Both the position numbers and the translations under genes were made by a program. Of a stretch of DNA of 64,000 bases, positions 44,671 to 48,158 are shown in pieces; within the stretch, counting starts at the first letter, position 1, and every line of letters starts with the position of its first letter. The notes under the pieces are model-generated. The model was not told where the DNA came from and did not search any database. It saw only the letters and a program-made list of their open reading frames with translations. Source of the stretch: an uncultured Kordiimonas sp. (GTDB lineage Bacteria > Pseudomonadota > Alphaproteobacteria > Sphingomonadales > Kordiimonadaceae); assembly GCA_947503575.1 (NCBI GenBank), contig CANNDZ010000001.1, positions 310,001 through 374,000 on the forward strand, given 5' to 3'.

Positions 44671-44745
44671 GCGGGCGTAGCTCAGGGGTAGAGCATAACC
44701 TTGCCAAGGTTAGGGTCGTGAGTTCGAATCTCATCGCCCGCTCCA
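44671..44745 (+). tRNA. tRNA-Gly (anticodon GCC)
   Basis: 75 bases with a full cloverleaf: acceptor arms GCGGGCG and CGCCCGC, D-loop AGCTCAGGGGTAGAGC, anticodon loop reading TTGCCAA between CCTTG-type stem arms, T-loop GTTCGAATC, and an encoded 3' TCCA. The anticodon GCC reads GGC/GGT. Its 3' end is duplicated as a 12-base match at 48078-48089. Confidence 0.98.
44727..44738 (+). repeat. Left copy of 12-base direct repeat (tRNA-Gly 3' end)
   Basis: AATCTCATCGCC in the T-arm/acceptor of tRNA-Gly. An identical copy in the same orientation lies at 48078-48089, on the far side of the accessory operon. It could be an attachment-site remnant. Confidence 0.5.
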
Positions 44746-44747
44746 TT

Positions 44748-44780
44748 AAAAAAGCCGGTTCCTTTGGGGCCGGCTTTTTT
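44748..44780. terminator. Bidirectional terminator after tRNA-Gly
   Basis: AAAAAAGCCGG and CCGGCTTTTTT are exact complementary arms around an 11-base loop. It ends tRNA-Gly transcription on the plus strand and, read the other way, the three-gene minus-strand operon whose last stop lies at 44807. Confidence 0.9.
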
Positions 44781-44806
44781 GGAAATTGCGGTCGCCTGAA
44801 GGGCGT

Positions 44807-45577
44807 TTAGAGAACATCCAGGTGCTGGGACCAACTACTGGCATGAATCTCCTCAATGCGGGCTTTGGTCAGCAACTCATGTTCCGGAGCGTGGATTACG
44901 AAGAATACTCGATGAGAACCTCTTTTAAATAGCACCGGCGTTACTGCAGTGTGTGTTTCAATTCGTGCTTCAATCTCTGCCTGCCTGATTCGTATCTGGT
45001 CCAATGACGGCATAGTGCGATTGAGGTGGTGATATACTACCAGGGTTTTGCTTGTGCTCAAAAAGCGATCCAACTCGGACCAGTAGACATATTTAGGGCC
45101 TTTGTCAGCGTGCGCTTTCACGGACTTGATTTCCAATCCGTTGTCAGGGTCCAAAAATATGATGTCGAGGTTTCGCACGGCTTCGATTGCTTGGCCAACC
45201 CACTTAGCACGCATAGACAGCCGCGCCTCTCGCTCAGCTTTTCCTATGATAGGCATGCCACTGAAAGTGAGCGGTTGATCGAAGAACTCGGTTGTTGAAG
45301 GGAGCAATGAAGAACGCTGAATATGACCAACCTGCCTGTCATGGTTGCCTAGATAGTGCCGCAGTGTGCCATACAGCTCTTGGTCACAGATGGCATATTC
45401 CTGCTTTTGCAGATAGGACACATGCTTACCATCATCATTGTGGCCTTCATCTGGCACCAGATACCAAACCACGCCCAGCGAAAGTTGAGGCCCTCCACTC
45501 GCGGTTATACCAGTAAGTTTCCTTAGAAGACCATATTTGCCAAAGTCGCCTACGTCGCCAAAATAACGGTTCTGCAT
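44807..45577 (-). CDS. Unrecognised protein of the tRNA-Gly accessory operon
   Basis: 256 residues, no signal peptide or membrane helix. Striking motifs are NRYFGDVGDFGKYGLLRK (3-20) at the very start, VVWYLVPDEGHNDDGKH (about 36-52), IIFLDPDNGLE (139-149), KYVYWSEL (162-169) and VVYHHLNR (180-187). The Asp/His-rich motifs are placed as in a nuclease or nucleotide-processing enzyme. The LDPDNG segment recalls the TcmP group of defence-associated proteins, though I cannot assign a fold. I remember similar proteins from other bacteria as hypothetical. Third gene of the operon: it starts one base after the Dcd-like stop, with a GAGGAAT ribosome site. Confidence 0.65.
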   Translation of the reverse strand: MQNRYFGDVGDFGKYGLLRKLTGITASGGPQLSLGVVWYLVPDEGHNDDGKHVSYLQKQEYAICDQELYGTLRHYLGNHDRQVGHIQRSSLLPSTTEFFDQPLTFSGMPIIGKAEREARLSMRAKWVGQAIEAVRNLDIIFLDPDNGLEIKSVKAHADKGPKYVYWSELDRFLSTSKTLVVYHHLNRTMPSLDQIRIRQAEIEARIETHTAVTPVLFKRGSHRVFFVIHAPEHELLTKARIEEIHASSWSQHLDVL

Positions 45578-45578
45578 T

Positions 45579-46670
45579 TTATTCCTCGGATGCGCCCGCT
45601 TCTGATTTAGAGTTTGCGCTAATTGAGTTCCGCAACTTGCTTACGTCTGATGCGAGCGCGTCCAGTTTTCGTTGAAGGCTCAAGAACTGCTCGGTGCTAA
45701 CACTGCCTTGATAAGACTTTTCAAGCTGAGTCTCCAATTCCTCTAATCGGCCTTCAAGTGCTGTTAGCTGGTTCTCTAAAGGCAAGGCTGCATCCAAATG
45801 GGCCGAGTATTGATCTTTGAAATCAATAATTGTGTCGTTTGCATCGCGACTGAGTTGCCAAGAGGCATAAAACAATGGGCCGAGACCAATAACAATTGTA
45901 AGAACCCCGATTATGCCGCCAACTCTCGTTCGCTCTCGAGCAACGGCGGCATCTGATTTTGCCTCACCAGCAATCGCTTTGACCTCCTGAACGGCGGCTG
46001 GAGTAGCGTTTCTGATAGGATTTCCCTCGTTTGCCTTCTGAAAGTAGTAGAAGGACTTGAGGCGTTTCTTACTCTCGGGGAATGGCTGATAAGTGCCGGT
46101 CCGTCTTACCAAGTCCCTTTCCCCATCCCAATTGGGCGTGGGGCTGATCTTTGTGAATTCGACCCAAATAAAGTTCTCTCCGCCTTTAAATGCGTAAGGA
46201 TTTGCCGTCAGGTTATGCAAGGGAATGTAAAGATGACCCTCGAAGCCAGGATCGACTAGTGGGCCGGTGCCTAACAGCAGCCCCTTGTGGACGTTTGAAA
46301 TTCTCAGATTAAACCGGATTGCCATGTAAGGCGGCAATCGGAAATATTGAAGGGTTTTGAAAAACACTAGGGAGTTTGGAGGCAATTTAACCTCCTTGTC
46401 TGGATCGAGCGAAACCGTATGTTTTCGCCCTTTTTCGTTCCAATAAAAGGCCTTGTCGCCTATCTCAACCTCGAAGGAAGAACTTTTCAGGTTTGCCGGA
46501 TCGTATGGATACAACATCCCCGTGGTTTCGATATAGTCGTGGATGTCTGCTGAGTTCAGGAGCGCTGGTGGGATGCTCGGAAATGGATCTCGTTCCTTTG
46601 TCTTCTCGAACCTCTTTGCTGCTTCTTCAGGGCTGGTCAGCGAGGTGGTGTTTTGCGCTGAGTCGCTCAT
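45579..46670 (-). CDS. dCTP-deaminase/dUTPase-fold protein with membrane helix and coiled coil
   Basis: 363 residues. Residues about 55-185 follow the Dcd pattern: NLKSSSFEVEIGD (60-72), LPPNSLVFFKTLQYFRLPP (96-114), IRFNLRISNVHKGLLLGTG (118-136) and VDPGFEGHLYIPLHNLT (139-155). The Glu that acts as general base in dCTP deaminase (LEFxN) is replaced here (IPLHN), so deamination is doubtful; nucleotide binding or hydrolysis remains possible. One transmembrane helix follows (about 251-271), then a coiled coil (about 297-350). The ATG start is chosen over an adjacent TTG. Middle gene of the operon, eight bases after the PurA-like stop. Confidence 0.75.
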   Translation of the reverse strand: MSDSAQNTTSLTSPEEAAKRFEKTKERDPFPSIPPALLNSADIHDYIETTGMLYPYDPANLKSSSFEVEIGDKAFYWNEKGRKHTVSLDPDKEVKLPPNSLVFFKTLQYFRLPPYMAIRFNLRISNVHKGLLLGTGPLVDPGFEGHLYIPLHNLTANPYAFKGGENFIWVEFTKISPTPNWDGERDLVRRTGTYQPFPESKKRLKSFYYFQKANEGNPIRNATPAAVQEVKAIAGEAKSDAAVARERTRVGGIIGVLTIVIGLGPLFYASWQLSRDANDTIIDFKDQYSAHLDAALPLENQLTALEGRLEELETQLEKSYQGSVSTEQFLSLQRKLDALASDVSKLRNSISANSKSEAGASEE

Positions 46671-46678
46671 CAAAGACT

Positions 46679-47722
46679 TCAGGCGTACTTTGCAGAAGGG
46701 TTATTTTGTACATGGGGAACTATGGTTGACGGCCCGAAACCAACAAAGCTGATCGGGTGATCAATCTGGCGCTCGATATCTGCAACGAAGGCCTCTGTCA
46801 CAGGCGAGTGTGCGTGCGAGCTTCGAGTTCCAGCATCAACATAATCTACGTGGTTCAAGACAATACTACTAGGTGAATTGGCCTCAATCGATGATTTGAC
46901 CACTTCTGCATCAAATCTTGCAACGCGGCGCACATTGTTGGTGACTGTGGTATATTCGACCAGTTCCTCATTGTACCCGCTTTCTGCGGTAACCGTTTCC
47001 CAATCGGTTTCATTTGGAAGAGGACCGGAATTGCCAGCCACGCGGATCGGGAACGCCCTAATCACCATGACTATCTCATCTACATCGAACGGACTCAAGC
47101 CCGTCTCCGAGAGAAAACCAGCGGCTGTCGTGTCGCGCGTTGTAACGTTAGGATAATCACACGAATGCAGCGGCGAAAGACCAAACCCTTGAGTGCCCTC
47201 AATGACAACCCTTTCGCCACCATTCAGGCGCTGGCGCAAAAAAGAACGAGCATTACAAATATATGGTGCCAGCCGTTGATCTTCGCTTGCGAACTTCGCT
47301 GAACCGTCTCGACGAAGTCGCGAGATGACCGCCGCACCAGTGCCGCTATTAGTCGAGCCTATCGCTTCACGGAGGTTGGCATTAATTTCCGCTTCTTTGT
47401 TGTCAGGTGTAATCAGAAGGGCATTCTCGTCAATCATCAACCGATCAGGAGTCAACCCCGTAGCTTGGATTTCTGCATATAGGATGTCCGGGTCAATGTA
47501 GGAACCCGCTGCAATAACCGAGTTGGCTGAAGGCAAAATAGACGGTGTTGGAAGAACCTGAAACTTTATCGGTGACCCATGAGGCCCGATAACTGTGTGG
47601 CCTGAATTGCAGCCACCGACGCGGACTGCCACGCACGATTTATGCTGGCGCGCAATTTCGTATGCAACTTTCCCTTTGCCTTCAGATCCGAACTGGCCTC
47701 CAACCACTATAGATACCGGCAT
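46679..47722 (-). CDS. Compact adenylosuccinate-synthetase homologue, PurZ-like
   Basis: 347 residues, much shorter than housekeeping PurA (about 430). Family motifs: GQFGSEGKGK (9-18), GGCNSGHT with the catalytic-type His42, GSTNSGTGAA (122-131), IEGTQGF (174-180), YPNVTTRDTTA (190-200), VTNNVRRVARFD (260-271) and a guanine-type NHVD (290-293). The general-base Asp of PurA (Asp13 in GDEGKGK) is Ser13 here, a change known from phage PurZ, which makes a 2-aminoadenine precursor from dGMP. Starts behind a strong AGGGAGGT site and leads the operon. The substrate (IMP, dGMP or other) is not known. Confidence 0.85.
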   Translation of the reverse strand: MPVSIVVGGQFGSEGKGKVAYEIARQHKSCVAVRVGGCNSGHTVIGPHGSPIKFQVLPTPSILPSANSVIAAGSYIDPDILYAEIQATGLTPDRLMIDENALLITPDNKEAEINANLREAIGSTNSGTGAAVISRLRRDGSAKFASEDQRLAPYICNARSFLRQRLNGGERVVIEGTQGFGLSPLHSCDYPNVTTRDTTAAGFLSETGLSPFDVDEIVMVIRAFPIRVAGNSGPLPNETDWETVTAESGYNEELVEYTTVTNNVRRVARFDAEVVKSSIEANSPSSIVLNHVDYVDAGTRSSHAHSPVTEAFVADIERQIDHPISFVGFGPSTIVPHVQNNPSAKYA

Positions 47723-47764
47723 GACGACCTCCCTGGCACAATATCTAGTATGAATCTTAACATT

Positions 47765-47804
47765 TTGACGATTCTAACGTCAATAGCAAAACGACGATTC
47801 TTAC
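47765..47804 (-). promoter_or_regulatory. Repeat-rich promoter of the PurZ-like operon
   Basis: Two direct copies of GACGATTCT(A/T)AC on the plus strand start 26 bases apart (47767 and 47793). The first overlaps a perfect inverted repeat, TTGACG-N7-CGTCAA (47765-47783). Read on the minus strand, TTGACG followed after 18 bases by TAAGAT could be a -35/-10 pair, just upstream of the PurZ-like start. Repeats of this type at a promoter suggest binding of a dimeric repressor or activator; none is encoded beside it. Confidence 0.5.
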
Positions 47805-48077
47805 ATTGGATTCAATGGCTTAATTTGATTCCGAAAAAGGAATCTGAAACAATGGGTTAGCATGAATTCTTAAGGAGTTATTTGCCCCCAATGCCAGCAC
47901 CAATTGCTGCCTGTGTGTGTATGTCTACGTTATCAACCTGATGACAATACCATATGTTCACTATTTGTTCCATCAGTTTTCACAGAAGTTTGGCCGGTTT
48001 TTTTAATGCGCTGATGTTTGTGTGATTTGATCTTTTCGTTCACGGAGTAGAGCCGAGTGGACGCGGAGCGGCCCGAC

Positions 48078-48089
48078 AATCTCATCGCC
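48078..48089 (+). repeat. Right copy of 12-base direct repeat
   Basis: AATCTCATCGCC, identical and in the same orientation to the tRNA-Gly 3' end at 44727-44738; the match continues with one mismatch to GC. Together they bracket about 3.3 kb holding the three-gene operon. Confidence 0.5.
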
Positions 48090-48158
48090 TGCGCTCTTGA
48101 CCAAAAACAGTCGCTTCTTGGCATTTTTTGCTCAAAAGCCAAAGGAGAGCAAAGGTGT

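What the first reader, a model, noticed from the sequence alone, without database searches (positions are those of the whole stretch)
44746..48077. Three-gene operon (PurZ-like, Dcd-like membrane protein, unknown) as a candidate new defence or nucleotide system
Seen: three tightly spaced minus-strand genes (gaps of 8 and 1 bases) beside a tRNA-Gly, and a GC sample of about 48% against about 62% in nearby housekeeping DNA. The products are a short adenylosuccinate-synthetase homologue lacking the catalytic Asp, a membrane-anchored dCTP-deaminase/dUTPase-fold protein lacking the deaminase Glu, and an unrecognised Asp/His-rich protein. Known: phage PurZ and nucleotide-depleting defences (dCTP deaminase, dGTPase) both work on purine or pyrimidine nucleotides. 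Inference: the three proteins sense or modify nucleotides during infection, or make an unusual purine nucleotide. I do not know of a described system with this composition.
Basis: partly seen in the sequence, partly recalled or inferred. Interest (0 to 1): 0.85.

Follow-up and report, generated by a model that had tools for sequence, protein, structure and literature searches.

The report
Mobile PurZ-type nucleotide system in bacteria
A small mobile gene cluster pairs a phage-style enzyme that rebuilds a DNA building block with a membrane protein that may sense such a building block; related clusters occur in many bacteria and one archaeon, and it looks like an undescribed, possibly antiviral, system.

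Summary
The three genes are real: A (PurZ/adenylosuccinate-synthetase-like), B (dCTP-deaminase-like domain plus membrane segment), C (unknown). They form a 3.3-kb insertion behind a tRNA-Gly; a related genome has the site without them. GC is 49% against 53% in the window, not 62% nearby. The A-B pair is conserved: a genome scan for A gave 73 usable loci, 49 with B, 44 of these directly downstream, in about ten phyla. 46 of the 49 also have a protein joining a nuclease, a DUF429-like region and usually a kinase domain; the window genome lacks it. C is accessory (13 of 49). A carries most of the phage PurZ signature (Ser for Asp13, Thr258, loop insertion). B is related to dUTPase-fold genes that follow purZ in phages but lacks their RSS and GFGS motifs and the deaminase Glu. 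Most likely reading: A turns dGMP into a 2-aminoadenine-type deoxynucleotide and B senses it at the membrane, probably in anti-phage defence. Families, linkage and mobility rest on computed results; chemistry, sensing and defence are inferred. I found no matching system in PADLOC or in my paper searches.

The parts
46679..47722 (-). Gene A, PurZ/PurA-like synthetase (347 aa): Ser13 in place of the catalytic Asp, His42 kept, Thr258, insertion after Val228
45579..46673 (-). Gene B, dCTP-deaminase-like domain (about 39-174), one hydrophobic (likely transmembrane) segment at about 251-269, weak coiled-coil-type matches after it; Pro in the place of the deaminase Glu (IPLHN)
44807..45577 (-). Gene C, unknown accessory protein with DPDNG invariant in 14 of 14 aligned sequences (256 aa)
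44671..44745 (+). tRNA-Gly(gcc), insertion site
   Evidence: same tRNA next to ybaK in 6 of 6 fetched relatives
44727..44741 (+). Left att-like repeat inside the 3' end of the tRNA gene
48078..48092 (+). Right att-like repeat (14 of 15 nt identical)
47723..48077 (.). Upstream intergenic part of the insert; probable control region of A-B-C (inferred)

Best explanation
A mobile cellular conflict system, most likely anti-phage. Shown by sequence: A belongs with the Ser-type PurZ group, not with ordinary PurA; B is a dCTP-deaminase/dUTPase-fold domain without the usual catalytic motifs, joined to a hydrophobic segment; A and B travel together, mostly with a nuclease/DUF429-like/kinase protein (U). 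Inferred: A converts dGMP plus aspartate into N6-succino-2-amino-dAMP (dSMP), which host PurB and kinases, or the system's own kinase, turn into dZ- or dS-type di- or triphosphates. B binds that unusual deoxynucleotide with its conserved pocket and, once loaded, assembles in and damages the membrane, stopping the infected cell. The nuclease part of U may supply dGMP from degraded DNA. The window copy is a minimal A-B-C version that would rely on host kinases; C's role is unknown.
For: A-B linkage: 49 of 73 loci, 44 of 49 directly downstream on one strand, about ten phyla by record titles; A and B distances correlate (r=0.70, 50 loci, 0 of 2000 permutations). PurZ signature in A: Ser13 in 50 of 50 rows and Thr258 in 48 of 50, against Asp and Gly in 8 of 8 PurA-type rows. 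Trees: Ser-type rows together, apart from PurA. B core conserved (RFNL-type motif 50 of 51, GTGP 45 of 51) while RSS is absent in 48 of 48 testable and GFG[ST] in 51 of 51, against 52 of 53 and 44 of 53 present in dUTPase-fold ORFs beside viral purZ. Hydrophobic segment in 46 of 51 B. Exonuclease acidic residues and kinase GKTT invariant in 18 of 18 aligned U (roles recalled). Insertion with an empty site in a relative. Plasmids typed conjugative carry A-B. A B-anchored sample found an independent U-A-B set with Ser in A (G467). Precedent: Kongming uses dITP as immune signal (one passage of PMC12948488).
Against: No assay, no known trigger, no proof that B binds a nucleotide or that any locus blocks phage. 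The window genome lacks U, so its copy may be reduced or work differently. The window is not an obvious defence island; the commonest Pfam family among neighbours of related loci is the housekeeping RlmJ (6 of 147 proteins). Ser13 is partly built into the scan pattern VGGQFGSE. Asp293 (50 of 50) stands where, by my alignment, S-2L PurZ has Gln308, as in PurA. Of two strong B-anchored hits besides the window, one (G377) is a truncated B with no A on its short contig.
Confidence: 0.45

Rival explanations
1. Z-nucleotide poisoning rather than signalling: A makes dZTP (and uses up dGMP, perhaps dATP as phosphate donor), the odd base enters phage DNA or starves its synthesis, and B buffers or localises the pool.
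For: Phage Z-cluster genes expressed in E. coli were toxic and put Z into DNA (PMC8342488 section 11); all 98 PurZ0 phage genomes of that study have dutZ, a dUTPase-fold gene (PMC12884076 passages), and B is related to such genes.
Against: B lacks motifs that those genes keep and carries a hydrophobic segment that a pool enzyme would not need; I saw no polymerase, DatZ or MazZ among the recurrent genes of the A-B loci.
Confidence: 0.2
2. Deoxynucleotide salvage or DNA catabolism: nuclease, kinases, dNK and A form a metabolic route from DNA fragments to purine nucleotides; B is a membrane-bound regulator.
For: U joins nuclease and kinase domains; a dNK-type gene lies in 8 of 49 B loci; rlmJ is a neighbour in six loci.
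Against: Rare and patchy (strong B hit in 2 of 385 and 2 of 398 genomes, own included in both); on plasmids typed conjugative; an insertion at a tRNA; the window genome has an ordinary PurA besides.
Confidence: 0.15
3. B is still an enzyme (DutZ-like dNTP pyrophosphohydrolase) held at the membrane, and depletes dNTPs in infection, as defensive dCTP deaminases do.
For: The [DE]PG motif is kept in 48 of 51 B; DCD and dUTPase-fold homology.
Against: Deaminase Glu replaced by Pro; RSS and GFG[ST] motifs absent.
Confidence: 0.12
4. Chance neighbourhood of unrelated genes.
For: C is missing from most loci (13 of 49) and also stands apart from A and B on three plasmids.
Against: A-B order kept across phyla, overlapping or nearly touching ORFs, correlated distances.
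Confidence: 0.03

Closest known systems
Phage Z-clusters: purZ-mazZ-datZ (S-2L) and purZ0-dutZ-dmtZ (Ghobes, Wayne)
   Same: A shares most of the PurZ signature and groups with viral PurZ; a dUTPase-fold ORF lies downstream of purZ in 53 of 80 viral loci, as B lies downstream of A
   Different: B has a hydrophobic segment and lacks RSS/GFGS; the loci add U or C; they are cellular genomes and plasmids; DatZ and MazZ are not among the recurrent genes I saw
Kongming (dITP signal)
   Same: Idea of a non-canonical deoxynucleotide made from a dNMP with the help of kinases and sensed by a dedicated protein
   Different: The passage read names KomA, KomB and the NAD-depleting KomC; I made no sequence comparison; the resemblance is functional and inferred
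Nucleotide-depleting defences (dCTP deaminase, dGTPase; recalled)
   Same: DCD fold
   Different: B lacks the deaminase Glu, has a hydrophobic segment and is paired with a PurZ-like synthetase; no PADLOC match to its DCD part was listed at the limit of E 10
Second arrangement found here: kinase-PurZ fusion + DUF7002
   Same: Ser-type synthetase with a kinase homologous to that of U
   Different: Kinase fused to A in 16 of 17 loci, DUF7002 instead of B; I found no name for it

Membership tests
PurZ (2-amino-adenylosuccinate synthetase) | Ser in place of catalytic Asp13 with GxxGxEGKG kept | tested here: met
   Window GQFGSEGKGK; 50 of 50 A rows Ser, 8 of 8 PurA-type rows Asp. Partly built into the scan pattern; kinase-anchored samples, without it, gave SEGKG in 3 of 4 genomes with fusions
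PurZ (2-amino-adenylosuccinate synthetase) | PurZ-unique ligand contacts T273 and Q308 and the insertion after V241 (S-2L numbering, PMC8342488 section 8) | tested here: inconclusive
   Thr258 (=T273) in 48 of 50 and an insertion after V228; the Q308 site is Asp293 in 50 of 50, as in 8 of 8 PurA-type rows. Residue matching is mine
PurZ (2-amino-adenylosuccinate synthetase) | NCBIfam NF038379 score over cut-off | tested here: not met
   230.9 bits against cut-off 300
PurZ (2-amino-adenylosuccinate synthetase) | Makes dSMP from dGMP | not testable with these tools
   needs an enzyme assay
Ordinary PurA | Catalytic Asp13; the genome's own purine gene | tested here: not met
   Ser13; the genome has a separate PurA-type gene on contig C2
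dCTP deaminase / DCD-DUT | Catalytic Glu in the I-x-L-E-F motif (recalled) | tested here: not met
   P in its place; 50 of 51 B with [IVC]P[LIV][HFY]N, 0 of 51 with the Glu pattern
dUTPase / DutZ | RSS motif and C-terminal GFGS-type motif (roles recalled) | tested here: not met
   0 of 48 and 0 of 51 B; 52 of 53 and 44 of 53 viral dUTPase-fold ORFs
Phage Z-cluster | purZ with datZ/mazZ or dutZ/dmtZ in a phage with Z-DNA | tested here: not met
   cellular insert with other partners; HD-type phosphohydrolase ORFs stand near A-B in L016, L017 and L039
Kongming | KomA, KomB and KomC proteins | tested here: inconclusive
   No such match for A, B or C in PADLOC 2023, which may predate the system; no direct comparison made
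Known anti-phage system in PADLOC 2023 | A, B or C matches a system model | tested here: not met
   best E 0.0029, LmuB, in B's C-terminal part; A 0.071; C none

The most novel reading that the evidence does not exclude
Cells use 2-aminoadenine-type deoxynucleotides (dSMP or dZTP) as an immune second messenger: a PurZ-type synthetase writes the signal, a dNMP-kinase partner charges it, and a membrane-bound, motif-degenerate dCTP-deaminase/dUTPase fold reads it. Z-DNA phages may have taken their purZ-dutZ pair from this cellular system, or the reverse.
Probability: 0.33. Interest if true: 0.95.

Novelty: categorically new. Interest (0 to 1): 0.82.

Why it matters
PurZ is known as the phage enzyme that lets viruses replace adenine by 2-aminoadenine. 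A conserved family of cellular operons built on such an enzyme, on plasmids and in a tRNA insertion site, in about ten phyla, would extend this chemistry from phage genomes to bacterial conflict systems, would point to a new nucleotide signal or poison, and would bear on where phage purZ and dutZ come from. The parts (A, the kinase, the DCD domain) can be tested one by one. The label 'categorically new' refers to the gene system, which failed the membership tests above; its function is not shown.

Tried and rejected
Rejected: ordinary metabolic PurA (separate PurA-type gene in the genome, Ser13). Not favoured: a dead synthetase, because Ser is what phage PurZ enzymes have. Not favoured: an active dCTP deaminase (Glu lost). 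Rejected: a three-gene core, since C is in 13 of 49 B loci, not always on the same strand or adjacent. Rejected as a close relative: the deazapurine-like cluster of a rhizobial plasmid (L021), whose PurA-like protein has Asp and falls outside the Ser-type rows.

Led nowhere: what C is (the one PDB match of its profile, E 0.0083, is a designed helix bundle); structure prediction (switched off). B-anchored sampling was thin: of 385 genomes of the class, own, one truncated B without A (G377, contig of 3.5 kb) and one weak DCD hit (G080, 66 bits); of 398 of the phylum, own, one U-A-B set followed by a kinase-like ORF (G467) and one weak DCD-type hit with other neighbours (G531, 70 bits). U-anchored sampling of the same groups gave a full-length U only in G467, an exonuclease-part match in G397, and four genomes whose kinase matches lie in kinase-PurZ fusions. 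The careful tree was not finished; a quick IQ-TREE tree and a FastTree tree were used. A-B rows are not one clade and viral rows lie among them; FastTree puts six A-B rows outside the rest (support 0.972), the quick IQ-TREE tree leaves four unresolved groups, so the direction of transfer is open.

Rows dropped: L098 (24-residue match, no A ORF); L017 (near-copy of L016) from trees and correlations; L040 (B fragment on the other strand) from correlations; L084 and rows under 150 bits or under 290 aa from the trees. L096 among the 73 is an ordinary Asp-type PurA. Of 97 viral relatives the best 80 were kept by the tool. Pfam and PADLOC scans of the neighbours list only the top 25 of 105 and of 145 families; the Pfam scan had no control. 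mad3 matches three proteins in both neighbour and control sets.

Papers: PMC12884076 passages; PMC8342488 passages, outline and sections 7, 8, 11; PMC12948488 one passage. Searches: 0 papers each; first 20 of 7,942, 750 and 906 seen as listings, none about this combination; 10, listing; 7, listing. The library holds only openly licensed PMC papers, so a subscription paper could have been missed.
Full report
Observation. The three ORFs, their strand and spacing, and the tRNA-Gly are as described. The GC statement is half right: the interval 44746-48077 has 49.0% GC, the window 52.9%, the 5-kb flanks 55.4% and 53.6%; 2 of 304 windows of that length are as low. No 1-kb window reaches 60%.

It is an insertion. 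The interval lies between a 15-nt stretch of the tRNA 3' end (44727-44741) and an imperfect copy (48078-48092). A match as long with at most one mismatch was reached in 2 of 200 mononucleotide shuffles, so the repeat alone is suggestive. The relatives add more: in 6 of 6 fetched relatives lon, trx and ybaK are found in the same order (tblastn) next to a tRNA-Gly, and in G006 (L247) the tRNA is followed after 184 bp by SnoaL, amidohydrolase and marR, the genes that in the window lie beyond A-B-C. That empty site itself holds a second copy of the tRNA tail, so the place seems to have been used before. Two others whose ORFs I listed (L248, L249) have other genes there. Among 59 genomes searched with B (own included), only the window's genome has a full match; the other 53 matches, the genome's own second one included, are 24-35 bits, probably ordinary DCD genes.

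The genes stay together. Scanning the GTDB species genomes with an alignment of A from the window and from a Sinorhizobium medicae plasmid gave 74 loci; 73 hold an A-type ORF, one of them (L096) an ordinary Asp-type PurA. 49 of 73 have B, and in 44 of 49 B lies directly downstream on the same strand (overlapping ORF calls or gaps up to 51 nt); of the other five, two have B on the other strand and three have gaps of 302-910 nt. Record titles of the B loci name Pseudomonadota, Cyanobacteria, Bacillota, Fibrobacteria, Verrucomicrobia, Planctomycetes, Acidobacteria, Dehalococcoidia, Nitrospira and a halobacterial archaeon (grouping into phyla mine, many are metagenome bins). Pairwise distances of A and B correlate over 50 loci (r=0.70), of A and U over 44 (r=0.79), of B and U (r=0.58), each with 0 of 2000 permutations as high; shared descent alone can also do this.

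The usual system is larger than the window copy. 50 of 73 loci have a protein U (about 520-930 aa), nearly always directly upstream of A (downstream in L041). By profiles grown from one U protein, 50 have its middle region and 46 an exonuclease region; a PolX/PHP-type N-terminus replaces it in two (L031, L033); most have a C-terminal P-loop kinase-like region, in some as a separate ORF. Pfam on four U proteins: RNase_H_2 strong in three, PHP and HHH in one (L033), AAA_18 over its cut-off in two and below it in one (L033); L052 has no kinase part; DUF429 only below its cut-off in two (E 0.0057 and 0.01), so 'DUF429-like' is tentative. B and U co-occur in 46 of 49. In 18 aligned U proteins (of 50 loci) acidic residues of the exonuclease motifs and the kinase GKTT are invariant (roles recalled). 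Other genes vary: a deoxynucleoside kinase-type ORF in 8 B loci (Pfam-checked in L033), C in 13. U is absent from the window genome by a single-protein search and by a profile that found 3 of 3 positive controls. So the window copy is an A-B-C form, as in L046 and L059; L016, L017 and L039 have A-B without U or C.

What A is. A short, archaeal-type synthetase (252 bits to PRK04293, 231 to PurZ, both below cut-off). Compared over 50 A rows, 18 other cellular rows (17 of the second arrangement or close to it, plus L027), 80 viral rows and 8 PurA-type rows, A shares with viral rows Ser13, Ser123, Ile226, the insertion after Val228 and Thr258; PurA-type rows have Asp, mostly Thr, Thr, mostly a gap, and Gly. 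In S-2L PurZ the corresponding Ser23 and T273 are named as PurZ-unique residues that interact with the substrates, and the insertion pulls V241 towards the 2' position (PMC8342488 sections 7-8; residue matching mine). One PurZ-unique contact is not shared: Q308 is Asp293 here. The scan patterns include VGGQFGSE, so Ser is partly built in; sampling by the U profile instead gave kinase-PurZ fusions in 4 genomes, 3 with SEGKG, and sampling by B gave G467 with SEGKG. In both trees the Ser-type rows group apart from the PurA rows (FastTree 0.994 with L021 included, 0.859 without it; SH-aLRT 99 in the quick IQ-TREE tree), with A-B and viral rows intermixed.

What B is. Its N-terminal domain is DCD-like (profile against PDB dCTP deaminases E 1.4e-15). 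The deaminase Glu is replaced: [IVC]P[LIV][HFY]N in 50 of 51. The stretch RFNLxIxHVHRGLLLGTGPLVDPGF is strongly conserved (GTGP 45 of 51), which suggests a bound ligand, while RSS (0 of 48 with a recognisable core) and GFG[ST] (0 of 51) are absent. 46 of 51 have a hydrophobic 19-residue stretch after the domain, by a Kyte-Doolittle window, not a trained predictor. In viral PurZ loci, 53 of 80 have a dUTPase-fold ORF downstream; a profile of four of these finds 33 ORFs in the cellular set at E<=0.01, and the 12 best, the only ones printed, are all B proteins. Published DutZ of PurZ0 phages is a Dut homologue. So purZ-dutZ in phages and A-B in cells look like parallel pairs, of which the phage member keeps motifs that the cellular one lacks.

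What C is. A family with Y5, D8, D11, K14, DPDNG and other residues invariant over 14 sequences, with A-B in 12 Alphaproteobacteria and one Dehalococcoidia record, and away from A and B on three plasmids. No family and no meaningful PDB match. The conserved charged residues suggest an enzyme; I cannot say which.

A second arrangement. 17 loci without B have DUF7002 beside or near A (an 18th, L044, has B too); in 16 of the 17 a kinase homologous to that of U is fused to A, and in nine an IrrE-like ORF lies upstream (IrrE checked by Pfam in L081 and L082, DUF7002 in L019 and L082). DUF7002 of L082 has a weak DarT match (E 0.0075, below cut-off). The same synthetase-kinase pair with a different partner resembles signalling defences in which effectors are exchanged; this is an analogy.

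Defence context. 147 neighbour proteins (of 352 candidates) from 47 A-B loci matched 145 PADLOC models at E<=1e-15; 141 of 258 ORFs from 20 arbitrarily chosen regions of the window's genome and relatives matched 23. Models are redundant (14 shown are RmrA, each on four proteins), the two sets differ in taxonomy, and only 25 of the 145 were shown, so this is weak support. Pfam on the neighbours lists RlmJ (6), IrrE (4), ABC transporter, resolvase and HD (3 each), HipA, Fic, N6-methylase, HsdS and others (2 each), and housekeeping families (no control). S. medicae copies sit near rep genes on plasmids typed conjugative.

Reading. A most likely makes dSMP from dGMP; kinases charge it; B senses a dS/dZ nucleotide and acts on the membrane. 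Supported by computation: families, motifs, linkage, mobility. Inferred: chemistry, ligand, trigger, effect. Kongming is the closest functional precedent, the phage purZ-dutZ pair the closest relatives. Toxicity of phage Z-cluster genes in E. coli fits an enzyme that needs control, and equally the rival that Z nucleotides are the weapon, not the signal.

Noticed in passing
L018 8016-10106 (R. beringeri plasmid) and L234 7270-9685 (G531): Other DCD-like proteins with hydrophobic C-terminal segments (by eye) stand beside other partners: after an AAA ATPase and a UvrD helicase (Gabija-like by recall) with a MazG-like protein (by eye), and between two uncharacterised ORFs. DCD-membrane proteins may be a wider class.
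   Followed up: partly
17 loci among L074-L097, and G150, G223, G525, G705: Ser-type synthetase, mostly fused to a kinase, with DUF7002 in the 17 loci (DUF7002 not checked in the four G genomes): a second PurZ-type cellular arrangement, in these samples more frequent than U-A-B.
   Followed up: partly
L021 5375-12938 (R. leguminosarum plasmid): Cluster annotated with folE, adenylosuccinate synthetase, PurB, QueE, IMP dehydrogenase, nitrile hydratase, QueC: looks like a 7-deazaadenine nucleoside pathway.
   Followed up: no
L099 6001-7041 and L101 6001-7035 (viral contigs): Lone A-like genes, 55-56% identical to the window's A, without B; in L099 reversed against the neighbouring ORFs. Possibly captured parts or decoys.
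   Followed up: partly
L041, L043, L057, L058, L063, L069, and L233 by eye: The system lies near rlmJ in several Alphaproteobacteria: a shared insertion place or a functional tie.
   Followed up: no
L016 11302-11904, L019 12253-12807, L020 9795-10343: HD-type phosphohydrolase genes near Ser-type synthetase genes on rhizobial plasmids; L016 and L019 match PHROG 318, and L019 weakly a phage dATP triphosphohydrolase family.
   Followed up: partly
window 44671-44745; L247, L248, L249: The tRNA-Gly behind ybaK seems to be an insertion hotspot in this genus: no A-B-C in G006, other genes in G003 and G018.
   Followed up: partly
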